Origin: Takashimella koratensis
Lineage: Eukaryota; Basidiomycota; Tremellomycetes; Trichosporonales; Tetragoniomycetaceae
Direction: 5' to 3'
Length of the DNA: 64,000 nucleotides
NCBI GenBank assembly: GCA_003116875.1
Contig: BCKT01000001.1
Coordinates: forward strand, 1,545,486 to 1,609,485
Shown here: piece after piece, positions 20,174 through 62,242 of the stretch
Layout of the letters: every line of letters begins with the position of its first letter
Numbering within the stretch: the stretch's first letter is position 1
Translations under genes and position numbers: made by a program
Notes under the pieces: generated by a model
Told to the model about the DNA's origin: nothing
Databases searched by the model: none
What the model saw: only the letters and a program-made list of their open reading frames with translations

Positions 20174-23100
20174 CTAAACCTCCGTGTCATGCGATCTTTC
20201 GTCAAGCGTATCGCGCGTATCGACATCACTGTGTGAATTGACGGTATCTACACTATCCTTACTCGGTTCCAACTCTGACGGGAGGTCCTCGCTCGTGTGG
20301 GCGACTTGGCTATGCTGAACTGGCTCGGAATCGGAAACCGCCACGGGGACAGAAGACGCAATGGACGAAGGTATCGGTGGGAGTGACGAAGGGACCGATT
20401 GGATACCGCTTCCTTCCTCTTCCTCCTCCCCCTCCTCCACCTCATCCTCGTCCATATCGTCGAAACCATCTTCTTCGGGCTCGTCATCCCCCGTTCCTGT
20501 GGCCGAAGCACTTGGCGCGCTCATTCGAGTGATCATAACGACTTCAGTCCCATCAGATCCGTGGGTCGTCGTCGTCGTCGTTGTCGACTCTGCACTCGGC
20601 TGGACTTGATCGGATTCGTCCTCCTCATCTTCGTCTTCGTCGTGTGGTTCGTGGATCGCCGCGGTCTCGGGTACGGGCTGTTCCGATACCTCTGGTTCCT
20701 CTTCGGCCTCTTCGACTTTTGCTTCCGGTTCCGGTTCCGGTTCCATCTCGACCTCAGGCTGGGGCTCCGGGATAATGTGTACAGGCTGCTGGACCGTAGG
20801 ACTAGGCTCTTCTCCATCCTCATCCTCATCCTCACCCTCTCCCAGGTCTTCGACAGTTCGCCTTTCAGGCTCAATGTGCTCCTGCCCCTGCTCCCGCTCC
20901 CGCTCCTCTTCCTCTCCCGCTTCCCCCGCCTCCTTGGCAGGCGTCACCGGTAAAACCGGAGTCGCTGGGGCTTCCGCTTCCTCATCTTCATCCTCATCCT
21001 CCGGCACGTCTCCCTCAACAGGAGCTACGGGAGTCACGGGCGTAACCGGAGTCGCGGGTGTTGCAGCTGCCTCAGGCTCAGGCGGCGCCACTGGCGATTG
21101 GCCATCCTCGACCTTCTCCACGACGTCGTTCTCCGTCTCCTTGGCAGGGTTCGGCTCGACTTCCTTGTTTACCTCGGCGTGTGCGCCCGTCTGCTCCGGC
21201 TGCTTTTCATTCTCTTCAACTTCGTCTTCCGAAGCTTCGAGATCCCCTTCGTCAGCCTTTGAGCCTGGCTCTCCGTCCTTCTCAGGCTCTTTTTCCGCCT
21301 CCACCTCAGGAACCGCTCCCTCCTCCGCCGGCTCAACGAGATGCGCCGAGGCAGTCTCGTTCTCAGGCACAACTTCGTCCTCCGCCTCCGCCTCCTCTGC
21401 CTCCACCGGCGCCTCCTCATGAGCCGATTCGGACGCTTCGTCTACTACTTCAGGCTCCACCTTGTCGACGGTCGCTACATGCGCCTCGCGTTTCGGTTCG
21501 CCGACCGGTTCTGGCTCTTGCTCAAGCTCTTGCTCTTGCTCGGGTTCGACTTGTTCAGCTTCTTGTGGCTCATCTACCGCCTCCCCGGCTTCCTGGTCTT
21601 GAGCATCGCCTTCGACTTCCCTCTCTTGCTCATCCTCTTCCTCTTCCTCGTCACGGGACGAGAACACTCCCCCGAGTTGGTTGATTTTCTCGTCGACGTT
21701 GACACCGGACTCGCCAAGGTTTGGGTCAGTGGCGGGAGCGTTGTCGCTGATCATGCCGGTAGACTCGGTTGACGGGAAGAGTTGAGTTTCGGGCTCAGAG
21801 GCGTCGATAGCGACTGGGTGAGAGATGTCCAAGGGCTGTGTGGGTTCGACAAGGTCGAAGGCCGGTTCAGGCTCCTCAACCGCCTGCTCTGCCTCAGGGA
21901 CGTGGATGGCCGATTCGATTTCGGGAACGTCGATGGCGGGCTCCGGTTCGATAACATCAAGCGCAGCTGCTGGTTCCGGAAAGTCGATGGCGGATTCAGG
22001 CTCGTCCTCAATCGCGGGTTTAGGCTCGGGCACGTCGATGGTCGATTCGGGCTCGGGAACTTCGATCGCGGACTCGGGCTCAATCTCGTGCTCAGGTTCC
22101 GGCACGTCGATCGGCTCGGGCACCTCGGGCGTCTCGATAGCTTCGATCGGTTCAATCGGCACAGCCGCCTCCATTGCCTCTGTCGTCTCAAATGCCTCGA
22201 CAGGCTCGACAGGCTCAATTGGAGCGATGAGCTCGGAAGACTCGACAGCTTCAGCTGGCGTGGCAGTTGGAGCGGTGAAAAAGCCCTCGGAATCCTCGTT
22301 CCTCATCGCAAACGCTTGAAGTCCTGGGGTCGCAAAGTCCTCTAGAGCGAACTCCAACGGCTGGCTATCCAATTCAGTAGGGGCCTCACGTTCAACTTCG
22401 TAATCGGGGGTTGCGAATACGTCTTCGGTTGGAGGTTGGACTACAGGTTCCAGGTGAGCGATAGCCTCAGTAGACGAAGTTGGGGCGATTGGGTCATCTT
22501 CGAGGGTGGGGATATGTCCTTGCTCCGGCTGAGTAGGCTGGACAAGACCGACAGCATGTGAGACCTCGTCCGTTTCCCCCTCGGGTCCCGCAGATTCGAA
22601 TACGGTCGATTCGAGCGTAGGGGCCTTGGGTACAGTAAATGCTGAATCGGCGTCGAGTGCGGAATCGGGCTCGGTGAGAGGGGTCTCGACTGCCTCTGCT
22701 GTGGCCAACTCGGCGGAGTCGTGGATCCTCTCGTCGAGGACTTGTGGCTCGTGTATATCCTCGAGTTCTTCTTCCTGTCCCTGTTCGTGAATCTCCTCGT
22801 GGGCGTCGTCGAGTACCTCGTCTTGCTTTCCTTGCACTGCAGCCTTCGCAGGTAATTCTTCCGCCTCAACCTCGTGATGAACCTCAGGCTCCAGCTCTGG
22901 GTATGACTTTGACCGCGACTGCGGGTCCGAATCCGGTTCCGACGCCTGTTGATCCGGCAACACGGAAGCCACGAGTCTCGGCGAAGGCGAGGGCGCAAGT
23001 GACCTCTGCGTCCTCCCTTCTATATCTTCCTCTTCCACACCTGTGAACATCTCCCTCTCCCCTTCTTTTCCTTCTTCGATTCGAGGCTGGATCTCGGTGT

Positions 23101-26100
23101 TCAGTTCAAGGAGCCCAGTCGACGCGGGAGTATAAGTATCGAGTCCGGCGAGCTGGTCGAAGGTCTCGACGTGTTCGGGAGGCGGAGTAGCTTCGTGTTC
23201 TTTGATCTCTGGAACCTCTTCTTCCTCGACAGCCTCTTTTGCCTCGCCTTTATCCTCGTTTCGGACCAAGGTCTGCTCCTCCTCGACGTGCTCTTTCTCC
23301 ACCACGGTCTCCTCCTCATCCTCTGACTTTCCAGACAGAGCAGATATCGCCGCCCCTGCTGCACCAGCTATCAGACCCGCCGCAGCGACCGTCGCCGCCG
23401 CGGTTGCTGCCGCAGCCGCTGTTGTCGCCGAAACCAATGGTGTCTCAAATTCCATCGGCCTGCCTTCGGACATTGGTGATTCCGATCGCTCGACCGACTC
23501 CAGGTGTTCACCGGCTTGACGCTCGGGCTCGCCTTGGTCGCCATGTTCATCGTCCGACATTGCCAGCGCATCGGCAAGGGACATGTGTCGCCCTCCGACA
23601 GTGTACCCTTCTTCCTCGACTTCTTCGACATCGCCACCGCTACCGGGCTCGGGTGATCCGAGCATGGACGCAGGGACAACGCGGACGGTTCCGAGTCGCG
23701 TAGGGGTAGCGAGGCTCGAAGAATCGGTGGAGACGTCAGCAGCGGTGATTTCTTCAGTTGCGTCGGCATCGTCGATGGCGTTGAAAGAGGCTTGAGCAGG
23801 GGTCGCGGGGGCCGGAGAAGGCGCAAGGGATTCGTTTTGGAAGATGGCACGGGTAGAGAGATCGTCGACGTCGTGGCGTGGGCTCGGGTCGGGGATCTGC
23901 ATCGCGATAGCGGTGGCTGCTGTCGCTGCGGTGACACCGGCAGCCAAGGTGACTACTTCTTCCCCACTAACGTTCCCACCAGTTTTGTGGTCATCGTGGG
24001 TGCCGTAGAGGTCTTGCGGTACCTGCTCTACCTGTGGCGCCGGTTTTGTCTCCGCCCAATGACGCCAAATCTTCTCATCGAGGTCGTACCACTTCTTCAA
24101 CGACTTGAGTGGTTTCAAATCTAGGTCGATCACTTTAACCTCGCTCAGTTCTTCGTTGAGGATATACTCTCCTTCGTATTCTGGATGCTGGGCCAGGACC
24201 GCCCGAACGAATACCGAGCAGTCCTTGAAGATCGCCGAGAGAGCGTAGGCGATCATCGTTGTCCTCAAGGTCCACGCTTCGGCTCCCTCGGCGGCGTCAG
24301 TGGCTGAGTAACCCTCGCCAGAGGAGAGATAGGAGTTGTAGGAGTCGATGAAAGCGGTGAGCTCGGTAGCGGTGGGCTCAGGGCAGAGGTCGGGAGAGAA
24401 GAGCGGGGAGTCGGGGTGGGCTGTAGCGAAACGGGCAGCGAGGCGGGAGATATCGGCGGGGTCGAGGCGGCTCTGGAGTCGAGCAAGGGCAGGAAGGACG
24501 TGTGTGGATAGAAGAAGAGGGATGAGGAAATTCTTGGTGCCTCCTGCAATGTCTTGTCCAGGCTGGGCAGTAGGGATCTTTTCGACCTGCTCGACGAGTC
24601 AGTCAGCTCGCCTTCTTGTCATACAGTTGATTCTCGTCATAGCTTCCACCTTGAACTCACCTCAATCGGTCCAACCCTCTCGCCATCCACAAAGACGCGT
24701 AGATTGTTCTTCTCTCCCGCACTAACCTCCCACCCTTCCCACAGTCCCTCGATCGCTTTCCCCATCCGCGCTTTGTCGCCCGAATACAGATCAAGTGGGC
24801 AATACACGTGGTCCCGCCCGTCAAGCTGGCCACGGAGATGCTGGTGCATACAGAACCGGCAATTGGTGGTTTTGATCGCGACAGATTCAGGAGGTGAGAG
24901 TGTTGTTGAAGGAGGTAAGAATCCCCATTTAGGCTAGAGGGATGGGTATTTGTAAGCTCAGGTTTGAACGGGGGTGGGTTGGAGTGGTGGCGAAACAAAC
25001 TCGATATCAGATGAAAGGAAGGGATACGGAGCGAGGAGGTGGGGGGGGGGGGGGGGGGGGAAGAGTCGAGACTGTCGCAAAGTCAAGCGGGCATCACGAC
25101 TTGACTCGACAAAGGAAGGGGCTGGAGCACTATGATAAGACTACACTGCCCCATCACCACCACAATCCGACGCCTTCCACCACCTTCCAGTGTTTGAAAA
25201 TTGGGAAGCAAATCTGGGAAGAGCGCCACAGAGAGCTCTGTCACTCACCTTGATCTCAAATGTGACGACTCTGTGGCCCTCAATCGCACCAGTGAGTGTC
25301 GGCATGATCTGTGCGTTTGCCGAGACAAGTTGTACCAGGGTCGAACCGGCGTCCACCGGTGTCCAAGGTTCCGACCCCACGGTTGACGCCGAGTTCGGCT
25401 GCGACTCTTCCCCTCTTTCACCTGATCCCTTGGCCCCTTCCTTCCTATGCAATGGCCGAGAATCCTCTGCGGCTTCGAGAAGGCGGTGCAGCCATGTCTC
25501 GTCACTCAACCTCACAGTCGAGGCAGGGACGAGCAAATCGGGATCTAGCAAACGCGGGAGGATCTTGTGTTCCCAAGCGTCTTGAGCGGCACTTGCCGTT
25601 TTCGCAGACTTGATGAATCGCAGTACCCGGCCGATGAAGGTCGGGTTCGAGCCGGTGTAGGCAAAGACGACGTGAAGCCCGCCTTCAGAGAAGTACGTCC
25701 AATCTTCCGGTGCAGTCTCAGTCGTCAGGCCGTCGTACGGGGTAGGTGTCTTCGGGATCGCAGGGGTATCGGAGACTGGACCGGCAAGTTGAGGGGTAAT
25801 TTCCGTGCCACTTGGCCCGACGACCGTCGCTTCGTCGGCGTCGGCGATTGGAGCAACTTTGACCACCTCGCCCATTTCTCCAGTCGTGTACTCTGTTGGC
25901 GCGGCAGACCCCACGGGACTCGCATCTTTCGCCTTGTCCCCCTCCGATCCGGCCACACCCTTGTCTTTCCCCTCTTCCGGTGTCGCCACTAACGGGGTTG
26001 TCGACCCGTTCCCCGCTACCTTCTGCTTGGCGTTCACGTTCTTACTCGAGCCGAACAAGCTCTTCCTGAACCCCGTTCCCGGCCGCGCCGAAGCAGTCGA

Positions 26101-43953: not shown

Positions 43954-44464
43954 ATGGATGGCACCGACACGTCTTCCGACACCTTCAACGTGCCCAAAAA
44001 TTGCCGAGAGGCGGCTCGACGTCATATCGCTTTACACCTTCAGGACAAGGCTTCATTGACATCTACGTTGTCCGATCGATCAAATTTCATTCAAATGGTG
44101 GTAGCGATGAGCGCGTGAGTTTCGATGAGTGATTCCTCAAACAGGATCCTACAACCGCCCTTGTCAACGCTTCCGCCCGCCGGTTATGTATTTTGGTATT
44201 CACTGCACTCTCGCAGTCCAGTAAATCTGACGTCGACACCGTTTTCGGATTGCTCAAGGAACAGAATAGCAGAATACAAACGTCGGAACAACTTGGCCAG
44301 TTTTATATTGAGCACAAAGAGTTTATCGATTCAACAAAGCACTCGTGTTTTAATTGCACTACAAAACTCAACAAGAGTTATGTCATCGGATCGTTGATGT
44401 GTTTAATTCGGCTTTGAAATACGCTCCAGAGATACGAGATGTTGGCTCTTTTGGGGAGAAGTGA
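43954..44464 (+). pseudogene. Array copy A: two-exon family member with a C-terminal frameshift
   Basis: The start ATG lies in AGCATGG. Exon 1 is 43954-44114 (DTFNVPKNC... to FIQMVVAMS). The intron is 44115-44221: donor GTGAGT, acceptor TCCAG. The other nearby acceptor, CGCAG, breaks frame. Exon 2 starts at 44222 (KSDVDTVFGLLKEQ) and reaches CFNCTTKLNKSYV. In this frame it then ends with IGSLMCLIRL and a stop at 44417. The family-like helix (IVDVFNSALKYA, ending at a TGA at 44462) continues in the neighbouring frame from about 44385. A one-base indel near 44380-44390 is therefore the simplest reading. As written, the product would be about 119 residues and lack the terminal H-C. It may be a pseudogene or a sequencing error. 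Confidence 0.6.
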
Positions 44465-45251
44465 GAGTTGCCCACCCAGTGCGGCTCACGTTGCTCCGAC
44501 GACGACCCCTGAGTTTTTGGAGCAGTCTTAAGTAGCTCTCGTCATGTTCTATTTATCGACTCCTTCGCATGCACACTTTCTGATGACTGTCTGACCGAGA
44601 CTCAATATGATATCGTTGCCGAACTCACTCATAATCAATTTGGTCAGAGCGTGAAATTGGGAGAGATTTGAGCTCAGGCTGAGTTAATCGCTCTGTTCTT
44701 CGTTTGACCGGCGCTACCAGCAGCTATTGTCCGTGACAACTGCGGTGTAGCATTTCCCGCGAGCCGCAAGCCTTACAATGCCAGGAGATGAGACATCGTT
44801 CGGGCTACACACGTTCCCTTGTTGCCTTTGGTGGTTGCCGTTTTGACACTACTTTCACCTCTTTTGCAATACCCATAGTCCGCTGATAAGAGTGAGATAG
44901 AGTGAAAGGAGAAACACAAATTTGACCGTGCAAGCCTGGACTCCAAGCAGACTCTCTTTTGTCGTGGTCGCCATCATCTCACCTTTCAGAAAGAGAGTCG
45001 ACCGCCATGCTCAAAGGACGGACTGTACTCTTTGTACTTTCGACCTCCTTTGCATCCTTGCTTGGGATTTCCTTTCGCCCCAACACTGCCAATCAGACCG
45101 TGCAAGACCATACTGTATGGTATCTTGAGGGATGACGAGCTGATTCAACATTTTAACCAATTTAGCGCTCTACCTGTTGGATTTGGTCGCTTCGCTTTTC
45201 TACTCGTCTTCCAATTTCTTTTTAGCGATATCTACTCCTGCGACTAGCACC
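44465..45251. other. Spacer between array copies A and B
   Basis: 787 bases, AT-richer than the window average by eye. One short frame (about 44579-44670, including TETQYDIVAELTHNQFG) looks protein-like but matches nothing I can name. No other feature is seen. Confidence 0.4.
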
Positions 45252-45782
45252 ATGGCAACTTCAAACGTCTTCACTGTTCCGGACAACTGGTCCACTCTCA
45301 CCGACACCTTCATAAAGTTGTCCGAAGACCGAGACGAGCTAGGTATCATAGTAAACGACCCGTCAAAGTGAATTCAGCTGCTCGCAATCAATGGTGTGAA
45401 GCTTCTCGATACACAGAAAGCCTTACCGGGTGTGGATTTTGTATCTCTAACCGGCATGGAGTCAACTCAAGACGAGTTCAAGCTGATCCAGTCCGCCCTT
45501 ACCCAGACCAATAATGGTGACTCAGAAGCGACGCTCGCTCAGCTCAAGAAGCAAGACCCAGACCTTGAACATCATATAGAATTCCTTAGGCTGGCATCAG
45601 AGTCCCTTCAGACCCTTTATCATGACCAAGGCTCTGGGTTCTTTTGTTCCAATTGCGGTACGAGGACTGTCATGACTGCGGTTGACCTGGCGCTTGAACA
45701 CGCATATTGTCTAATGAAGAAACAGGATGTACCTTCGCTCGTGCTACCCTCTCATTGCAGCAATAATGAGGAGTCCGCTTAG
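45252..45782 (+). pseudogene. Array copy B: family member with one in-frame TGA
   Basis: The ATG is at 45252 in CACCATGG. The frame runs 39 codons (FTVPDNW near the start) to a TGA at 45369, then continues in the same frame to a stop at 45780. The whole is 176 codons plus stop if the TGA is passed. The TGA falls inside the conserved central motif (DPSK-stop-IQLLAINGV), where copy D has DKASSVQLLMI. The second part carries KKQDPDLEHHIEFL, C-x2-C (FFCSNCGT), AVDLALEHAY and the terminal PSHCSNN. A 51-nt in-frame intron (GTAAAC at about 45353 to the AAG before 45402) would remove the stop, but also the conserved motif. A nonsense mutation is therefore more likely. Confidence 0.62.
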
Positions 45783-46156
45783 TTCTTTGTTAGTGTTCTG
45801 TCTTGTTTTGAGGGGGACGTTGCATGCAGCTACTGTTCCGCTTGCATCAATACCAAATACCCATTCGAGGCTAAGATCAATATTGGCTCGAAACTGAGCC
45901 CCCCTTCTCCTCCCAAGCAGATAGCTTTTCTGACCAGCTACTCCGGGATACCATGCTTTCCAACACATCAGCCAAATGAAGACTGGCGAGGGGACATTGG
46001 AAGACTGAAGGCGTCAAAGGAAAGTCTGCGAGCCCGATCTTCCGCATTTTCCTGTTCAAAACACGGTGAGAGAGGATGCACCATACAAAAGAAGAAACTT
46101 CAGTGCGGTGGATCGTCTCGCCCAACTTCCTACAGCTTTCTACTCCATAGACCGCC
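45783..46156. other. Spacer between array copies B and C
   Basis: 374 bases between the copy B stop and the copy C start. No gene, TATA box or repeat is seen. Confidence 0.35.
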
Positions 46157-46746
46157 ATGAACAACCACAACAGCTCAATCTCAGATACTGCTGCTCAAGT
46201 GCCTTTATCTTGGGACGAGCTAGCAGAGCAGGTATGGAACTCGACTACTCAAGCGAGTGTTCTGAAGACATCATGTCGGACATTTCTAAAACCGCCCAGC
46301 TCCTCGCCGCTCACGCAACCGCAGAGCTTGACGAGGAAAAGAAACTAGTTCAGCGCCCTCGAGCCATTCGACCAAGCAAACAAGCTCGAGCACACGTCAA
46401 GATCGCAATCCGAGGCAAAAAGGACTGGATCGACATACAAACTGAGCTCATGTCGAAATCCGACGACGAAGGCGGTGATAGCGTGTTCAAGGAGTTTGAC
46501 GAATCTTCATTCAGAATTCTTAGTGGCAATTATGTCAAACGAAGTTGCATCAACTTGCAGACTATCTATAAGACCAACCGAGCAGCTTTCTACGACCAGC
46601 AGTTCACTTGTCCAAATTGCAAGCAGACGTTTTACCCAAACAGTTCACTTCCAGCTGCGATAGACTTGTGCTTCGAATACACAATGGCGCAAGAGGAGGG
46701 ACGCTACCTGCCGTCATTAGACCTGCGTTCACATCATTCCAAGTAG
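46157..46746 (+). pseudogene. Array copy C: family member with a one-base frameshift or an internal intron
   Basis: From the ATG at 46157 the first 25 codons give the family N-terminus (AAQVPLSWDELAEQ). After about 46228 the family-like frame is the next one (SEDIMSDISKTAQLLAAHA, ..., QFTCPNCKQTF, PAAIDLCFEY, LPSLDLRSHHSK). Spacing to the central motif equals that of copy B if one base is shifted here. An alternative is an intron from GTATGG (about 46228) to CGCCCAG (about 46298), phase 0 at both ends with a CTAAAA branch. It would restore one protein but delete the conserved central segment. A third option is translation from the in-frame ATG at 46231. The terminal H-H is present. Confidence 0.6.
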
Positions 46747-47168
46747 TCTCCTGCTACGATCCCCCCCCCCCCCCCCTTCCCCGCGGCCCCCTTTAGCGAT
46801 CGTACTGAAAATACATAGCGTCGCGCTCAAAAGATCCAGCCTACCCTTGATCTGAGACTGAATGTGCGAGCTCGGAAATCTCGCCGGTCTTTTTGAAGGG
46901 AGTAGTCTATCGCCGGAATGGTACACAAAGGGAGAAAGACAGCTGGGCTGCCAGCCATCGCTTGACACTATCCTTTGCGGTGCGGAGTTGAATGGGCATT
47001 TCTAGCAAAGCCCCCAGGCTGTATATACATATACAGTGTTTCCCTCCATGTTGTGATATTCCCGTATTCCCCAAACATCGTAAAAAACCTCAAATATAGC
47101 AAGCGCCTATACTCCACATCTCGGATATTTCTGTGGAGACGACCAATAGGACTGGTCCATGGAAGGAC
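46747..47168. promoter_or_regulatory. Spacer and promoter of array copy D
   Basis: 422 bases. A C16 run lies at 46761 and a TATATA at 47022-47027 (within a GTATATACATATAC palindrome-like stretch), about 145 bases before the ATG used for copy D. Confidence 0.4.
46761..46776 (+). repeat. C16 homopolymer
   Basis: Sixteen consecutive C immediately after the stop of copy C. Confidence 0.85.
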
Positions 47169-47768
47169 ATGGTCTCTCGCACCTGGCGGACAGTTTCAAG
47201 GGTTCTGCTACCAGATCGAACACGGAGTGCATGGGCAGAGTCAGGGGTTCAACTCTTGACTGCAACCGAGAACGGAGAAGCCTTGAAAAAGATCTTGGCT
47301 GACAAAGCGTCTTCCGTCCAACTCCTGATGATTGGTGATTTTTTGAACCTTCAACAATCGCGGTCGTTCACGACGAAAAGAGGTGAACACCAGGAGGGGA
47401 TCACAGATGAACAGCACTTGTGCGTTGATATTCTCAACATACTACAAAATGCTCCTAAGGACAGCGATGATGAGACAGCCCAATCCCCCACAAGTCTCAC
47501 TGACATGGACAACTGGAATGTTGAGTTGGCTTCACATGCCGATATGCTCAATGATGCGTATGACATCTTGATAAGTCTCTACAAGGGCAGTCCTGACTAC
47601 TTTCCCATGGTACCGACCAAGTCAACTCTTGATGGCAAAATAATCAAGCCGAATACGTATCTGTTAGAAACAATCGACCTTGCCCTCTGGCGTGCCAAAT
47701 TGAAAGCGGGAGGTCATGAAGATCCGATGACGGATTTAGAGACATATCTGACCTTTGAGAATGCTTGA
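47169..47768 (+). CDS. Array copy D: open family member without the C-x2-C
   Basis: A single open frame of 199 residues from the first in-frame ATG (47169). The frame is also open upstream to 47133, but without an ATG. It has the central motif (ILADKASSVQLLMIGDFL), the helix equivalent to the last third of the family (MLNDAYDILISLYKG), and NTYLLETIDLALWRA aligned with the post-zinc helix of the other copies. The C-x2-C is replaced by a segment around PMVPTKSTLDG, and the terminal H-C by LETYLTFENA. The predicted metal site is therefore lost although the frame is intact. No signal peptide or membrane segment is seen. Function unknown. Confidence 0.62.
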   Translation: MVSRTWRTVSRVLLPDRTRSAWAESGVQLLTATENGEALKKILADKASSVQLLMIGDFLNLQQSRSFTTKRGEHQEGITDEQHLCVDILNILQNAPKDSDDETAQSPTSLTDMDNWNVELASHADMLNDAYDILISLYKGSPDYFPMVPTKSTLDGKIIKPNTYLLETIDLALWRAKLKAGGHEDPMTDLETYLTFENA

Positions 47769-49450
47769 TAGTGCTTTGGAGGAAATACTTGACGGAATAG
47801 GCGATGGCTTAAATTGGGCTTTCTGATCGGTAGTCAGACAACATGAATGAATGCTTTAGCCTTGCAAAGGGGGGGACTTGACAAGTGGTTGATATCCAGT
47901 CTTTCGTCCGTGTAGTCTTTTGGTGAGATACGCTCTCGGAGTTATTCATGGCTTTGGTTGTATGCCGAATGGAATGACCAAGTGTAGGCTGTTGCTACTA
48001 CCCGACCTAAAAGGTAGCTTACCATATAGATTATAGCTCAATTCGTCGAGATCTTTGATATCGGAGCAGAGACATGACTTCGAGAGCTCTGGCAGGGGCA
48101 GAGCAAAGAGCTTCCTCATGGCTCTCCAACTATAGCGACACGAAAATGAGCTCTCCGTGTTCTGCTGGAATGCCGCTTCTGTCCATCTTGCCACTATCGT
48201 TAGGGAAACTTCGTATACCTCCCCCGATGAGCTAACTCTGTAACCATCAGACTTGACTCGTGGAAGGACATCCTTTCCCTGGCACTATATCAAGGCTAGA
48301 CTGCGCAACTACCCAAACATTCAGAAAGGTAAGCACATACCTGGAGCGGCCGTTCCAATCCAATTGCTTCTCATACCGATTGCATCCAGCCCGTAGCGCT
48401 GACCGGGTTCACATTCTCATTGGGTCGAGCTTTGTTACACCTTTGTCTTGTCAACGAGTGCAAAAAATACGTGAAACTCTTCAAGCCCGGTTACTCCGTT
48501 AGCCTCTAGGATCAAAAGAGGGATCGACAAGGACTCGGCATCTATGCGGTCTCTTTTCAACATGATCTCAAAGTAATGCTTCAAACTCACCCGGACTTAC
48601 ATCAAAGAAGAGGCGTTGACGTGTTGCCAGTCTGAAATTTGATGATCGGCAGTGTCCTTTGTTGCCCGGGGCTGTAGGCAACTGAGAGTCAACAGAAGAG
48701 CCGCAACAGGATATCAGGCAGCCAAGTGTAGAGCGTGAGTCGGAAAAATATATAAAGAGCGCAAAGGCGACAGACGCATGGTAGAGAACCAGCTGTTTAG
48801 TCCAATGCTTTTCATAAACTTCACACAATTATCTTTTGACACCTCATACATCCTGAGCTCAATCACACTGCGATCTCTTCCCTCTCGCCTCCCTCAGATC
48901 AGTTAGTGATAACGTTAAAGCCATCCTACAGTCCACTATTCAGCGGCCGGTGCTGTTGCCAGAGCGCCTTCTGTTGTACTACATGCACCATGTGCGACAT
49001 CCAGCCTTGTGGTTGAGCTGTTCGATGGCCACTTTCCTTTGATCATTTCAACCTTTCAGCCTACGTTGGGGACATCTCGTTTGCTCCCGTGACTCCTTAC
49101 AGCACTTTATGCCTCCGAACAAGTCCAGACCCGGCTACTGGGGTGCGTACGGGAGGTATAAAGGAGCTACGCTCTGCTTACTGGACAGCCGGTGGACTCT
49201 CTGAGACTTCAACCTTTCAATGTCTCTCGGCAGTCAGTGCATTGCTGGACGAGGAGTTAAAAGGAAGCTTCGGACGCTATTGAGCCGCCTTTGATTCCGA
49301 ATTCAGCATTGCTCTAGGAGTTGTGGCCCACTCGACTCTTGGACATATAAAAGTTGCGTATCTCCCAGTCCGAATGCTCTTTGTCTCATGACAGAACACT
49401 TTCTGTCCACGATATTGCAACACAAGTGAACCACTATCACTTCACCCAAC
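47769..49450. other. Long spacer between array copies D and E
   Basis: 1.7 kb without a supported gene. A TATATAAA at 48749-48756, followed by GAGCG, resembles the promoter of the possible copy G (TATAAAAGAGCG). A lost family copy may once have followed, but no family motif is recognisable there. A second TATA (TATAAAA at 49346-49352) lies about 100 bases before copy E and probably serves it. Confidence 0.4.
49346..49352 (+). promoter_or_regulatory. TATA box of array copy E
   Basis: TATAAAA in GGACATATAAAAGTTGCG, 99 bases before the last base preceding the ATG at 49451. Confidence 0.6.
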
Positions 49451-50080
49451 ATGAGCCATGGCATCTACGCGTTTAACGCCCCCTCGAAAGAGTGGCATCA
49501 GCGTGCTCTGAACGCCCGGGAGCTCACCACCGACACTACAATGCTCGGCACAATGCTGTCTAACAAATCGTGGTGCTATCTTCTACTGTCCGGGGAGTGC
49601 TTCAAGAAGGCTACTGGTACCATACTTGAAGCCGGTCGGAACATTTCGATAGCAGGCAAATCGGGCATACTTTTATCCAACTCTAGCGGTCACACTGAGA
49701 CCGTCAAACGGTGGGAGGCTTTCCCGAGAATATCGACTAAGGTCTTAGGTTTGAAGACCGATCAGGAGGTAGACACGGCAATTGAAGCCCTCAAACAGGA
49801 GCAGCCCGATCTTGCCGAACACTGCAACACGCTTGAAAATGCTTACGGCATTTTTAAATCGATTCAAACGTATCACGCTGATAAGCTTCCTAATACCACG
49901 GTGGGTACGTGCTCTTATTGCGGCGAGGAATTGGGTCCAGGATCGTATGTTACCCTAGCTTTGAACATGGCCTTGGATGGAGCCGTTGCTGGGAAGTCTG
50001 CCGATCAACTCTCGCTGGACACATTTTTACACTGCGACTCAGCGCGTTCAGCAGTCAATACCGGAATAGCTAGCGTTTGA
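49451..50080 (+). CDS. Array copy E: intact family member with C-x2-C and H-C
   Basis: A single open frame of 209 residues from the ATG at 49451 (CAACATGAGCC), with a TATA box about 100 bases upstream. It has the N-terminal YAFNAPSKEW, a central MLSNKSWCYLLLSGECF that aligns with the VQLL motif of copy D, and an insertion of about 40 residues. Then come LKQEQPDLAEHCNTLENAYG (compare KKQDPDLEHH in copy B), GTCSYCGEELGPGSYV, a hydrophobic helix (TLALNMALDGAVAG) and FLHCDS near the end. The spacing C-x2-C-x36-H-C fits the other copies. No signal peptide or membrane segment is seen. This is the best copy for testing whether the family makes a protein. Function unknown. Confidence 0.68.
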   Translation: MSHGIYAFNAPSKEWHQRALNARELTTDTTMLGTMLSNKSWCYLLLSGECFKKATGTILEAGRNISIAGKSGILLSNSSGHTETVKRWEAFPRISTKVLGLKTDQEVDTAIEALKQEQPDLAEHCNTLENAYGIFKSIQTYHADKLPNTTVGTCSYCGEELGPGSYVTLALNMALDGAVAGKSADQLSLDTFLHCDSARSAVNTGIASV

Positions 50081-50297
50081 GATCTCATCATGTAGAGACT
50101 GCGCCGGTTGATTCGTTTCACTTCCCTAGTTGATCAGCTGGACCGATGCACACGGTTTCGTCGGCAATACGCCCAGTCAATGCGTGAAAGCTGTAGAACG
50201 GCAAATGTCTTAATCCGAGCAACAAGTAAGAGACCTCAGTTGACCCCCCTGTTGTTCTGGTCTTTCTCACAAACTGTATCCTATCTCTGGTCCATGT

Positions 50298-50757
50298 TTG
50301 ATGGAGATCAGTGAGTGCATTCAGTGTGGTCGAAATTGGGCGGTGTGCGCAAACAGCCAACTAGTAAGACATGTTCAGCAAAATACCGACACAGTGACAA
50401 CCATTAATGCACTCTATAACATGCCAACTCTTCCCATCAAATCTGATCATGTGCAACTGCGGACGACAATGGACAGTTCGCTTTCAGCCGTTTCAGAGTG
50501 AGTAGATCATCTCACATAGGCTTATGCACAATGAGAAAAACAGAAGGTGTTTTACCAGTCGAGCCAACGTTGACCTGCCCCGACTGTTTGGTCACGCTTG
50601 TACCGAGCACTTATCTATGCAATGGTACAAAGTTTAGCGTTGCAAATGCTCGTAGAAGTGGACAGGCTGAGTCTCCGTTTCGGGTGCTCTCACACTGCCA
50701 TCCGTCAGAAATTCCGAAGTCTCAAACCAAAGATGCCAACCCCCGTAACTCGTAATT
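50298..50757 (+). pseudogene. Array copy F: shortened, decayed family member
   Basis: The first part (to about 50497) encodes CIQCGRNWAVC and then a central-motif relict (KSDHVQLRTTMDSS). A GTGAGT at 50498 is at the same place as the intron donor of copy A relative to the central motif. After a possible AAACAG acceptor near 50543 comes the family C-terminus (TLTCPDCLVTLVPSTYL, FRVLSHCHPSE) with spacing C-x2-C-x35-H-C. The two parts do not join in phase at these sites, and the middle of the protein is missing. It is probably a relict. Confidence 0.5.
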
Positions 50758-50981
50758 AGAAGAATTGGTCATAATTTTGAATGCATTAAGTGTAGTTGCC
50801 ACAGGGCGGAACATGCGTATATGAAGGGGTAGAAAGAACTACAAACTACGTAACAGACCTGACCTTCACCGACTTGTGAATTCGGGTCTTGCAGCCGAGT
50901 CGCAACATTATAAAAGAGCGTCACGACTCAACCGATACAGTGCCACTTCCACACGCACTGATCTACTGCTCTCCTCAACCA
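50758..50981. promoter_or_regulatory. Spacer with a TATA box before possible copy G
   Basis: TATAAAA at 50909-50915, followed by GAGCG, about 70 bases before an ATG at 50982. Confidence 0.35.
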
Positions 50982-51098
50982 ATGTCTACGTGTATCGCGT
51001 TCGACTCGTCTGCGATATCTTGCCGAAACGGCTGCTACAGTGCCCACCCAGAGAAAGAGACTGTCCATGCTCGAGTAGTGAGCGAAAGTGGAAAATAG
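50982..51098 (+). other. Possible truncated array copy G, 38 codons
   Basis: A short frame (MSTCIAFDSSAISCRNGCYS...) with a well-placed TATA box similar to the one at 48749. It contains a C-x3-C but none of the diagnostic family motifs. It may be the 5' remnant of a further copy whose body was lost next to the deacetylase gene, or chance. Confidence 0.25.
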
Positions 51099-57122: not shown

Positions 57123-60100
57123 ATGCAGGCGCCCGTCCTGACAAAGTGCTCGCCCACTATCGTGCGGTACGAGACCGCCCCGGCCACCGACGCCGAGTGG
57201 CTCGAGGCGCTCAAACTGTATGTCCCTCTATAGTGGCCGATTGAATTGGTCATCTTTCCGCCCATCTCATCGCATCTGCACCTACCCGAGCCAAAGCTGA
57301 CCAACAACCAATTCCTACCTGCTCACAACTTCACTCCCACGTCCCATATCTCCCACTCCCGCCTGGACCTCCCTTCCCCCCGCTCTCTCCCCTGCATGCT
57401 CCCCTCCACAGGTACGGGCGAGACCGCGAGTCTCGGCCAAACGACCACTCGGCACTCCTCATGGGTCCTGACCCGGGCACCGACAGCGTCTGTCCAGCAG
57501 CAGGGCCCTCTCGACTCCTCGTCCACTCTGAACACCTAGGCAGCCCTCCCAAACGGCAGTCTATCCCCCACCCCGAAGGCGAGGACGGAGAGGGCAGGTC
57601 AACAACGCCTCCGCCAATGGCAACGCCTTGGGGTGTCGCCGTTGAGAAGTCGATTCAGGATCAGGTCAGTCTTCATTTCCGAGCTCGCTCTCTTTCCTCT
57701 TATCCACGTTTCATCCCTCACCAGCGCTGACATGTCTTCAACCTCCTTACATTTACCATGCATCGTTCCCGGATTCCCCCCTTGACTATTGCCGCTCTCC
57801 TTTTGCAGATGGTCGAGGAAGGCCTGGAGCCCAACAGCTACACATGGACTCTTGGCATGCCGCGTGCTCGCAGTCCCGCGGTCGGCGACGAGGACTCGGC
57901 CGAGATCGAGCGCCTACGACTTCGCGAATACTTTGAGGCCAAAGGCTATTTGTGTGCTTCCAGACCGTCCCGTGCGACGCGCGTTCACCGCAATCGCGCA
58001 ATCAGGCGGCTAGGTCTGTTGACGGGTGAAAAGGAGGAGGCAGAGCGTCGAGCTGTGATTGCAAAGTATGCAGAAATGGCACAACAGGCAAGTCGTCGTA
58101 TCCGCTCTCCCATCTCTTTTGCGCTCTTTTCTCATCGTGCCCTCGTGGTCCATTCAATGACGACTCTATACAAACATCCTTCTTTTGTCTGAATCCAAGC
58201 TGACGACTCTTCCTTTTCCCTCGGCTATCGGGCTTGCAGATCTTCCAAACGTCCAAAGCAACCGTATCTATCCTCCAAGAAGATGCACACCACATTTACG
58301 GCCCGGATCCCGAAGTACCGTTCCACAGCGTCGAACTAGGCGAGATGGCATGCAGCCATGTTGTTGCGCAATCAGAAGATTCGTGCTTCATTATCGCCGA
58401 CCTTTCACTAGACTGGCGGTTCACGGGCAACCCAATGAGAAAGAAGTTTGGCAACAAGGTATGTCGCACAACTTTCTATCTTTATCCCAATCTGACTATT
58501 CAATGTCTTGGCTCACCGCGTGGTATAGTTTTACGCAGCTGCCCCATTGAGATACCGACGCCCAGGTTTCCCTCCCGTCGATATCGGCACACTAGCATTG
58601 TTTGACGTCAACCCAAGAGAGACCTTTGACATGCGTGATCGCATGATCTTGCTCAATCTCGCCAACATGCTTGTTTTCCAACTCGCCACTCTGGTGAGCG
58701 ACGCCTCTTCTCTCTCTTATCGGTTAATACGCTGACTCTGAATGCAGCAATCTGAGATCACGGCGAAGAAGTCGTCGGCGATGCACGAAGCGACCATCTC
58801 GTTCCTTCGACGTTCGGTAATCCCAGATCACCTCAAACCATCACTCAATCGCGAGAAGAATAGGGAGAAGGAGAGGAAGCGCGCAAGTGACAAGTCGACA
58901 AAACACAATCTATCCAAGAGCACCGTCAAGAAAAATGGCGAGGTCGATGGTGCACAAAAGTCGGGTGAAAGTGGCGCCGAGGATGGGTTGTCTGCCCTTC
59001 CAAGCTCTCTTGATGTACCGGGCAGTCACGATGTCAAGTTGAGGCGACCATCTTCGGCGAAACCGATCAAGCGGCCGCCTCTGCATGCGACGAAGACTGG
59101 GCCGAAAGACACGAAGAATGCAAAAATGCAGGAGAGCGTCGCGGAGAAGCAAATGTAGGTTTGATCAACGACAAGAGGGGATCAAGCTCACCACCTGCTA
59201 CAGCTTTACCGATGCCGCTGCCACACTACGTCAAATCCTTCAAGCCGACGCCGTAGCCATGGTTGACACGCACGAGTTCCAGTTGTTCATCCGCAAATCC
59301 GATGCGACATCAAACGGGGTGCGCGACTTGAACACGAAAGAAGGCATCGTCAGCGATTTCTTACAAGGTAAAGCGTGGCCTGCCAATATCGAGCCCGTCG
59401 TCAACTACGTCCGCAAGAGTACCAGCCCAGGTGTCGCGATTCTCGGCAGTGATGCCGCCCCTGGTTCCGAGTTCCACTTTGACCGACCCGACGTACCCGA
59501 CACGATGACCCAGTTCATCAAGACATATCTGACGACGCGTCACTTCTGGTGGGACCGCGAGGAGCAGGATGGATTTGGATCAAGTATCATGGGACTCATG
59601 CCCGACTCGAGTCAGACAGTTCTCGCGGTGCTCTTCATGGCCTTTGACGGAACGGTCAAGTACGCGACGTTTGCCTCGTGGAATACACCACCCTCGGCCT
59701 TCGGGGACGGTAACCGGACCGCGCTGCCGTTCGTCTGGATCCTGGGTAGCACCTTGCTCGCTTCCATGGCGATTAGGAAGATTCGGATGATGGAGCAGAG
59801 CCAAATTTCGTACTCCAATCTCCAGGCGCACGAGCTGCGTACACCTTTGCACCAGATCCTCGCGATCACGCAGTTACTTCGTTCCGCCATGTCCGACCTT
59901 GCCGACCAACCCGCCGCCAGTGCCGAATCATCCCTCACGACCGTGCAGCAGATCCGCGACCTGCTGCCCTTCCTTGACGCGATCGACACCAGCGGTAAAA
60001 CGCTCCACGGGATTGTCGATAACATTCTCTCTTTCCTCGACCTAAAAGCTAAGGACGGGCGAGCGGACAACCCCGGTATCATCTCGAGCCCCTCGGGTGC

Positions 60101-62242
60101 ACCGCAGACATTCGAGTCCATGTTCGAGGAGCTTATCCATGAGGCTTGCGAGGAGGACAAGCGCGGACGCAGGGCCAACGGGCAACCAGCGAGTCGAATC
60201 GAAACCGTCTTCGAGATCATCCCGCCCTTGCTAGGAGAGCAAGTAACCGAGGATGCCGGAGGAGCATTGAGGAAGGCACTGGGCAAAATCATCTCGAACG
60301 CGTACAAGTATATCGAGAACGAGGGTTGTGTTGAGATCTACGTCGATGATGTGCCGAGCATGCTCCCCCCGTCTGGATACGAAGATGTGAGCGAGTTGTC
60401 TCAAGTGATGAGTTGTGTCAACTGACAAATTTGCAGCTCTCACTCCAGCAATGGGTGAGCATCAAAATCGTTGATAACGGCCGAGGCATGTCGGTCGACT
60501 TTGTGCGTGATAAGCTTGGCGAGCCATGGGCCAAGGAGGACCTGTACGCAACGGGCTCGGGATTGTCGGTCCACCTCGCGTACCGTATCATCGACCTTAT
60601 GGGTGGGCGGATGGAGATCTCGTCTGCTCCCGGTGCTGGCTGCACGGTCACGCTCGAGGTGCCTGTCCCACGCAGACCCGTGTCTCTTCCCTCCTCGCCG
60701 TCTCTCATTGAGAGCGCCGCGCACCTCGCGTCTCACCCAGACGACCTTCACGTCGGACGCAAGGTAGCGCTCTTTGGGTTTGACGCCAACGAGGAACGAC
60801 CCGAGAATGGTCTCAGTCGCCTCGGAGCCTGCCTCGAGCGCCAGTACACCAAGCTCGGGTGCAAATTCGTTCCTCTCATCGAGGCCGAGCTCGTTGTTGC
60901 CGATGCCAGCATCGAGGAGAAACTCAACGCCGCGGGACTGTACGATTTGTTGCATTCGGGCGTGGAGGTGGTTTATCTGGTTGGAGAAGAGCACGAGGCG
61001 TGTCCTGTGGCAGTGAAGCGAGCGCACGAGAAGGGGATCCGAGTGAGGCGGTTCAGAAAACCTGCGACGCCAAGCCACCTCCGCGAAACACTGTACCCGG
61101 GTCAAGCCAAGGCTCTTCGTCACCCTGGTCGAGGCGCCGTCCCGGTGAGCGCACCTGAATCGGTCGACTCGCACGGAAACCCGGCGTCCAACCCGGACGT
61201 CCCGCCCGCTGCGGCCGAGCGCAGGACGCACTTTGCTTCGAAAGCCCTCACGCGGTCGGAAGAGGAAGCGGCGAGTGCGGGAGGACTCGGATCGGCTCTC
61301 GTTGCGTCAGGAGGTGGGTCGTCGCCTGCTGGGTTCATGCCGACAGCGTTGTCGTGGAAGCCCAAGGGTATCTGTGTGGAAGAAGCGGTCGCGTCATTGT
61401 GCCTTGGAGACTACTTTTCGTCACGCAGGAGGTCGAGTCGACCCAGTTATAACAGCCTGCAGAGGACGCCGTCGAATGGGTCATCAGCGAGGGAGTCGGG
61501 TACAGGTACGGGAACTTCAGCGTCAGGGGGTTACGTATCGTACGAGACGACTCCACCGAGGTCGGACGGAACGCCAGCCACCGAGTCGAGTGAGCGCTTC
61601 GATGATGGACACCACAATCATCACCACAGACACCGTCGTTCGGATTCGAGTCCCAACGGTGTATTCGACGACGAGCACGATGACGAATCCGAAGACGAGC
61701 CGACTACACCGGAGACGGTCAAAGTCCTAGTTGTCGAGGACAACATGATCAACCGCAAGATCCTAGTCAAGATCCTCTCGTCCAAACTCGCTATCGAAGT
61801 CTGCGAAGCCGAAGATGGTCAAGCGGCTGTCGATATGTTTAAAGACTTTACATCCCCCGCCATCGTCTTGCTCGATATCAATATGCCGAGGATGGACGGG
61901 TACACTGCCGCTTCGGAGATGCGGGCGATCGAGAAAACGAGGTTATCGAGCCTCGCGTCGATCTCGACAGATTCGAACGGGACAGGGTCGGGGTCGTCGG
62001 CCCCAACGCCGTCGACGGCAGCGAGCAGTGCAGGGCCAGAGACACCGCCAATGGCGTCCCCGCTGAGCCCGTTCGCCACTCGTCCGTCAAGGATCATTGC
62101 GGTCACCGCGCTCGGAAGCGAGTCAGAGAAGAGGAGGGGACTGGTAGAGTGTGGGATCGATGATTGGTTGGTCAAGCCTTGCGCAAAGGCGACAATCACG
62201 AAGGTGGTTGAAGAGGCAAGGCTCGAATTGTTGAGCCCGTGA
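57123..62242 (+). CDS. Hybrid histidine kinase with GAF-like sensor and two receiver-like regions
   Basis: Two-component phosphorelay sensor, probably soluble since no membrane segment is evident. Eight exons (57123-57217, 57412-57664, 57809-58087, 58240-58458, 58529-58693, 58748-59154, 59204-60386, 60437-62242) give 1468 residues. A GAF-like sensor region spans about 210-660, interrupted by a Lys/Ser-rich loop (58840-59150). The phospho-acceptor His is near 682 in AHELRTPLHQ. The ATPase domain has an N box (KIISNAYKYIE), G1 (DNGRGM) and G2 (TGSGLSVHLAYRI). After it, KVALFGFD... (about 975-1080) resembles a receiver without its Asp. The C-terminal receiver is intact: VVEDNMINRK, the phospho-Asp near 1347 (LLDINMPRMDG) and KPC. 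A Ser/Gly/Pro loop of about 55 residues interrupts it. Intron 3 begins with GC instead of GT (CAG|GCAAGT at 58088). Confidence 0.9.

What the first reader, a model, noticed from the sequence alone, without database searches (positions are those of the whole stretch)
43954..51098. Undescribed tandem family of small putative zinc-binding proteins
At least six + strand copies occur in 7 kb. They look unrelated to the flanking genes but share an ordered set of motifs: F-x-V-P-x-x-W near the start, a central V-Q-L-L-like core, a P-D-L-x-x-H/E helix, and C-x2-C followed by H-C or H-H. The spacing between C-x2-C and the final His is 32, 37, 36 and 35 residues in copies B, C, E and F, which argues against chance. 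High divergence, mixed intact and broken copies and a local A/T shift fit a fast-evolving lineage-specific family of the birth-and-death kind. I cannot connect it to any named family. Roles in self/non-self or host interaction are open speculation.
Basis: partly seen in the sequence, partly recalled or inferred. Interest (0 to 1): 0.88.

Follow-up and report, generated by a model that had tools for sequence, protein, structure and literature searches.

The report
Divergent fungal gene array, zinc-like motif
A 7-kb stretch of a tremella-type yeast chromosome holds a real but very divergent cluster of related small genes, two of them open and the rest damaged, whose proteins look helical and carry a probable metal-binding clamp, and for which no convincing known relative was found.

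Summary
Copies B, C, D and E are true, collinear relatives: each, left out of the profile, is the best remaining hit in 264 kb of six-frame translation (E 2e-4 to 3e-9). A and F are weaker, but F shares the C-x2-C-x30-40-H-[CH] signature, found four times in this 7.3 kb and three times in the other 257 kb. D and E are open (199, 209 aa); B has an in-frame stop, C a frame change, A and F are relics. D lacks the putative ligands. A further relative, G1, lies on another contig, with C-x2-C-x38-C-x2-C, so the family is not limited to this array and a four-ligand site is likelier. Nothing passed a Pfam cut-off, and protein and fold searches were empty, while a neighbouring gene found 299 relatives. 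A weak profile match to coatomer epsilon (E down to 9e-5) is set aside, not excluded. 'Lineage-specific' and 'fast-evolving' stay unproven: consensus queries lacking one copy did not recover it. Most likely: small helical binding proteins with structural zinc, kept by duplication and decay. The biological role is open.

The parts
43954..44118 (+). Copy A, N-terminal block (F-N-V-P start), 54 codons; a GTGAGT sits at its end
   Evidence: ORF; shuffle test A-B z 4.1, 0 of 500; A against C, D, E and F at chance
44193..44396 (+). Copy A, second block in another frame with C-F-N-C (44346-44357); frame lost after it, no C-terminal H-C
   Evidence: 0.34 with B as query; E 0.053 with D left out
45252..45782 (+). 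Copy B, 176 codons with one in-frame TGA (45369-45371); C-S-N-C then x32 then H-C
46157..46270 (+). Copy C, N-terminal part in a first frame (A-Q-V-P-L-S-W)
   Evidence: (in the profile by construction)
46264..46746 (+). Copy C, remainder in the next frame; C-P-N-C then x37 then H-H
47169..47768 (+). Copy D, open frame of 199 aa, aligned along its length but without the Cys/His set
49346..49353 (+). TATAAAAG, 105 nt before the ATG of copy E (another ATG, closed by a stop, lies between)
   Evidence: 4 of the 6 + strand TATAAA[AG] of the window lie in the array, which is also richer in A/T
49451..50080 (+). Copy E, open frame of 209 aa; C-S-Y-C (residues 154, 157) then x36 then H-C (194, 195)
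   Evidence: fold model
50510..50755 (+). Copy F, C-terminal remnant; C-P-D-C then x35 then H-C
   Evidence: E 0.8, 0.013 when G1 is in the profile

Best explanation
This is a real multigene family of a tremellomycete yeast. Shown: at least four homologous copies plus two weaker remnants in tandem on one strand, two of them open, and a further relative on another contig; silent sites near saturation while a protein pattern persists. Inferred: each intact gene makes a soluble protein of about 200 residues, mostly helices, without a recognisable Pfam enzyme domain, whose C-terminal hairpin (C-x2-C) and last segment (H-C, or C-x2-C in G1) clamp one structural zinc ion. It most likely works as a small non-enzymatic binding module for another protein or a nucleic acid, made from TATA-type promoters. 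The array grows by local duplication and shrinks by stops, frame changes and deletions; D has probably changed its role after losing the metal site.
For: Homology and order. Protein-level pattern: second codon positions agree, third hardly (the alignment was made on proteins, which favours positions 1 and 2). D and E stay open although only short 71-88% DNA matches remain in the region; three ORFs of 170 aa or more, as observed, occurred in 0 of 300 simulated regions. Metal site: signature 4 times in 7.3 kb against 3 in the other 257 kb; the set is gone in D; G1 keeps C-x2-C and has a second C-x2-C 38 residues on. Fold: helical model, mean pLDDT 71.4, pTM 0.70, with two short strands on either side of C-x2-C, again in the C-terminal part alone. 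Promoters: TATA boxes 105 nt before the ATG of E and 86 nt before that of G1.
Against: No direct evidence of expression, zinc, solubility or function. The models rest on 5 or 6 sequences, and the H-C of E lies in blocks with mean pLDDT 55 and 48. A and F are near chance in many comparisons, and as tblastn queries they do not find the other copies first. Only 2 of 6 array copies are open, so the locus might be dying. One ORF of 199 aa or more arose in 4 of 300 simulated regions. No TATAAA[AG] was found before A, B, C or D; a TATATA at 47022 lies upstream of D.
Confidence: 0.5

Rival explanations
1. The copies are far-diverged members of a known, widespread fungal family whose link lies below the detection limit of the searches here.
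For: Other copies share only 14-26% identity with E, and consensus queries lacking a copy did not find it in its own genome, so relatives elsewhere could easily be missed. A profile match to coatomer epsilon recurs (best chain E 3e-4, 9e-5 and 0.019).
Against: No Pfam match over cut-off for the 4 array proteins, no PHROG match better than E 0.02, no Foldseek match with E <= 0.001 in PDB or viral models. A locus of this genome that Pfam labels coatomer epsilon scores below 0 bits with the family profiles, but that label is itself weak.
Confidence: 0.25
2. The array is a graveyard of a mobile-element or viral gene, for example a Gag-like or nucleocapsid-like helical protein with a zinc knuckle, captured and now decaying.
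For: Helical model with a zinc-type motif, several broken copies, low-GC island, two separate loci. Copy C had below-cut-off matches to HTH_Tnp_Mu_2 (E 0.027 and 0.011), weak.
Against: Pfam found no transposon domain in 10 ORFs of the rest of the window (one AAA protein there also rang Parvo_NS1 just below its cut-off, which its AAA domain explains) nor any match better than E 0.079 in 10 small ORFs of the array; direct and inverted repeats in the region are only short and imperfect; BFVD gave no match with E <= 0.001. The motif is not the C-x2-C-x4-H-x4-C knuckle of Gag (recalled).
Confidence: 0.12
3. Chance ORFs and chance motifs in an A/T-richer intergenic region.
For: A and F alone are near chance; single long ORFs can arise by chance (4 of 300).
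Against: Leave-one-out profiles succeed in 4 of 4 cases, G1 scores 22.3 bits against a best of 10.0 among 2000 shuffles, 1658 of them reported, signature enrichment.
Confidence: 0.02

Closest known systems
Fungal multicopy conflict genes, e.g. wtf genes of Schizosaccharomyces pombe and Spok genes of Podospora (search listing and starts of abstracts only)
   Same: Divergent multicopy family in a fungal genome; open and broken copies (for wtf recalled)
   Different: No sequence relation was tested; wtf proteins have membrane-spanning segments (recalled) and two transcription start sites (abstract start of PMC9762604); nothing here points to killing or drive
Zinc-ribbon type proteins (weak Pfam matches Zn_ribbon_NUD, ADK_lid; below cut-off)
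   Same: A C-x2-C between two short strands
   Different: Second ligand pair is an adjacent H-C about 35 residues on and follows a helix; no profile reaches its cut-off
Coatomer subunit epsilon (PDB 3mkr, 5a1v, 6tzt)
   Same: Profile similarity over about 90 positions, E down to 9e-5
   Different: Match leaves out the metal motif; the three chains align to the same stretch and look like close relatives of one another; E and D alone do not find it; a locus labelled coatomer epsilon in this genome does not match

Membership tests
Tandem birth-and-death gene family | Adjacent homologous copies on one strand | tested here: met
   B, C, D, E, with A and F weaker
Tandem birth-and-death gene family | Mixture of open and disrupted copies | tested here: met
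   D and E open; stop in B, frame change in C, A and F relics
Tandem birth-and-death gene family | Copy number differs between related species or strains | not testable with these tools
   no relatives of this genome are held
Zinc-binding protein (structural site) | Conserved set of four Cys/His at corresponding places | tested here: met
   B, C, E and F have the signature, G1 a variant with C-x2-C twice; A has the first pair and is broken after it; D has none of the set
Zinc-binding protein (structural site) | Ligands meet in space and bind zinc | tested here: inconclusive
   models give no coordinates here and the H-C end is of low confidence; metal binding needs a bench test
Coatomer epsilon / TPR proteins | Profile match extends to the genome's own family member | tested here: inconclusive
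   locus L034 scores below 0 bits, but its own label rests on 19.1 bits (26.8 with neighbours; cut-off 21) and that Pfam query also rang in 6 of 14 control genomes, prokaryotes
Any Pfam-A family | Score over the curated cut-off | tested here: not met
   0 of 4 array proteins, 0 of 2 for G1 and partial G2, 0 of 10 small ORFs of the array; for the 6 members of A4 the best E was 0.011, cut-offs shown for one member only
wtf/Spok-type killer genes | Meiotic drive or killing activity | not testable with these tools
   needs crosses

The most novel reading that the evidence does not exclude
An undescribed protein family with its own fold: a helical bundle closed by a C-x2-C / H-C zinc clamp whose second half can be swapped for a second C-x2-C, spread over at least two chromosomes of a tremellomycete yeast and turning over fast enough to suggest an intracellular arms race (against mobile elements, mycoviruses or rival alleles).
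Probability: 0.2. Interest if true: 0.7.

Novelty: new member of a known kind. Interest (0 to 1): 0.45.

Why it matters
If it is expressed and binds zinc, it is a small-protein family that annotation by similarity could easily miss, because its copies are only about 14-26% identical to copy E. It also shows how a family can be recognised inside one genome from motif order and leave-one-out profiles although single copies do not find one another. A role in conflict or recognition would make it more important, but nothing here shows that.

Tried and rejected
Rejected by eye: an intron over the stop in B (the in-frame GT-AG stretch I saw is 27 nt and would remove part of the conserved core). Left open: a GT-AG stretch in C that would splice in frame across the frame change; its donor is poor and it would remove a homologous helix. 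For A: an intron from 44115; the peptide just before the possible acceptor is itself similar to B, so a disrupted frame seems likelier.

In some searches the query called B1 was cut one base off its frame; its hits mean nothing and were ignored. One search failed on a file name and was repeated.

Limit found: single copies do not find one another in the genome search, and leave-one-out consensus queries did not find E or B, so absence of further copies is not shown. My own profile scan covered the window and 200 kb of sampled chromosome 1, about 1% of the genome.
Full report
WHAT WAS CHECKED. The finding names at least six related small genes on the + strand between 43954 and 51098. The window is part of contig C1 (1545486-1609485) of a 25.1-Mb genome in 24 contigs. 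The gene to the right, 51208 onward on the - strand, matches Polysacc_deac_1, a chitin deacetylase; its best protein relative is from Cryptotrichosporon argae, 59% identity over 74% of the query, and at least 30 of the 120 listed relatives are named tremellomycetes. So the host is most likely a tremellomycete yeast; the species is not known. The gene to the left matches Gly_transf_sug.

THE COPIES ARE REAL RELATIVES. A tblastn of the pieces against the whole window put another copy first among non-self places for B (C, E 0.002, then E, 0.007), C (B, 0.002), D (E, 0.009) and E (D, 0.010); for F the first non-self places lay outside the array, and A did not find the other copies. Of 21 piece pairs, 4 were reached by 0 of 500 shuffles (A-B, B-C, B-E, D-E), 5 by 2 to 7 of 500 (A2-D, B-D, C-E, C-F, D-F) and 12 by 51 to 460; 11 of those 12 involve pieces of A or F (one, A-A2, lies within copy A), the other is C-D (64 of 500). 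Profiles built from three of B, C, D and E and run over 264 kb in six frames (window plus 20 sampled 10-kb stretches) ranked the left-out copy first in 4 of 4 runs, E 2.8e-7, 2.2e-4, 3.4e-9 and 4.4e-7; A or F came next in all four, at E between 0.053 and 6.1, which is not significant alone. At aligned codons, second positions agree well above chance in 6 of 6 pairs (z 5.2-7.9); third positions have z -0.8 to 2.7, above 2 in two pairs with D. The alignment was made on proteins, which favours positions 1 and 2, so this shows near-saturation of silent sites more than it proves selection. Only short 71-88% direct and 73-88% inverted DNA matches are left in the region.

STATE OF EACH COPY. D (199 aa) and E (209 aa) are open. 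Three ORFs of 170 aa or more, as here, arose in 0 of 300 simulated regions, one of 199 or more in 4 of 300. B is open but for one TGA at 45369-45371. C changes frame near 46264. A has its N-terminal and its C-x2-C blocks in different frames and loses the frame after the C-x2-C. F is a C-terminal remnant. GC at codon position 3 is 0.51-0.56 in B to E and 0.57-0.80 in the seven other exons or ORFs of the window that were measured, in line with the low GC of the array (the 20 sampled stretches have 0.527-0.571).

THE METAL-TYPE SIGNATURE. The pattern C-x2-C, 30-40 residues without a stop, H-C or H-H occurs 7 times in 264 kb in six frames; 4 of these are B, C, E and F, with spacings 32, 37, 36 and 35. 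Elsewhere it occurs about 0.12 times per 10 kb, so about 0.09 would be expected in the array; the copies are related, so the four are not independent, but for F, the weakest, it is separate support. In D the set is missing although the rest aligns; its only Cys is residue 85. The strict start motif F-x-V-P-x-x-W is only in B; a looser pattern covers C, D and E but occurs 58 times in the window and so says little.

A SECOND LOCUS. Consensus queries of the family found the array copies and, near noise level, places on C8 (E 1.28) and C2 (401646, E 0.14). The C8 place did not hold up. The C2 place scores 17.6 and 21.4 bits with two family profiles; with X at its frame change the protein, G1, scores 22.3 bits against a best of 10.0 among 2000 shuffles of itself, 1658 of them reported. 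Scaling from the 264-kb scans I expect about 0.001 such scores by chance in the genome (my estimate). G1 starts M-S-A-N, has M-K-L-L-A at the Q-L-L core, C-K-D-C where the copies have C-x2-C, and a second C-K-D-C 38 residues on, at or next to the place of H-C. Its frame changes at a run of T, either a true break or a read error. A TATAAATA lies 86 nt before its ATG, as a TATAAAAG lies 105 nt before that of E. When G1 joins the profile, F rises from E 0.8 to 0.013. The neighbour G2, in an open frame of 228 codons, is not significantly related in the part seen.

HOW COMPLETE IS THIS. It is not. A consensus made without E did not find E in its own genome, and one without B did not find B. The genome search therefore cannot exclude more copies, and the searches of 5.8 billion proteins with E alone (106 candidates scored, none at E <= 10) and with the four-copy alignment (2312 candidates, none at E <= 1) cannot exclude relatives in other fungi, although the database holds many tremellomycete proteins.

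STRUCTURE. The model of E (5 sequences) has mean pLDDT 71.4 and pTM 0.70, eight helices of four or more residues, and a two-residue strand on each side of C-x2-C; the C-terminal part alone (6 sequences) gives the same order with pLDDT 72.0 and pTM 0.63. Foldseek found no match with E <= 0.001 in PDB or viral models; VIA-align gave only middling Z, best 5.6 (rmsd 3.5, 83 residues) and 3.8 (rmsd 3.0, 46 residues). The H-C (residues 194-195) lies in blocks of mean pLDDT 55 and 48, and no coordinates are given, so whether the ligands meet was not tested.

OTHER KINSHIPS TESTED. Pfam gave only matches below cut-off where cut-offs were shown. A profile match to coatomer epsilon (best chain E 3e-4, 9e-5, 0.019) is the strongest outside hit. 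It comes from three chains of one protein that align to the same stretch, leaves out the metal motif, is not found by E or D alone, and is not seen for a locus of this genome labelled coatomer epsilon; but that label is weak and its Pfam query also rang in 6 of 14 control genomes. I set it aside as chance or shared helical pattern; it is not excluded.

VERDICT. A real, divergent gene family, undescribed as far as these searches reach, with a likely structural zinc site; two open copies and relics in this array, one relative elsewhere. Steps shown: homology, order, disruption, shared signature, second locus. Steps inferred: zinc, soluble binding role, promoter-driven expression, birth and death. 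Not shown: speed of evolution, restriction to one lineage, any role in recognition.

Noticed in passing
window 48751, 49157, 50909: Three further + strand TATAAA[AG] boxes in the array with no recognisable family gene behind them; 49157 and 50909 are followed 63 and 73 nt on by ATGs that read M-S-L-G-S and M-S-T-C-I-A-F (for the distances). They may be promoters of lost copies; the five-copy profile reported nothing there.
   Followed up: partly
L047 2887-3285 (C2:403031-403429 and beyond): Open gene G2, same strand and about 1 kb after G1, with W-K-N-F-L-D-D-D-A-S-A-K-A-Q-T-L-F that resembles the Q-L-L core by eye; not significant in the part seen.
   Followed up: partly
L047 1-700, - strand: G1 lies beside a stretch that reads like a tRNA isopentenyltransferase (G-T-T-G-V-G-K-S and S-A-D-S-M-Q-L-Y-K-G-L-D; label recalled, no family search made).
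   Followed up: no
G000 C1:2176657-2176932, - strand: Weak hit of the G1 query (E 1.18, two TAG inside); its letters were not available.
   Followed up: no
window 46761-46776: Run of 16 C bases directly after copy C.
   Followed up: no
window 20174-24598, - strand: Single open frame of 1474 codons, acidic and repetitive (glutamate/proline rich).
   Followed up: no
window 59043-62239, + strand: Hybrid histidine kinase (HisKA, HATPase_c, Response_reg) in two frames.
   Followed up: no
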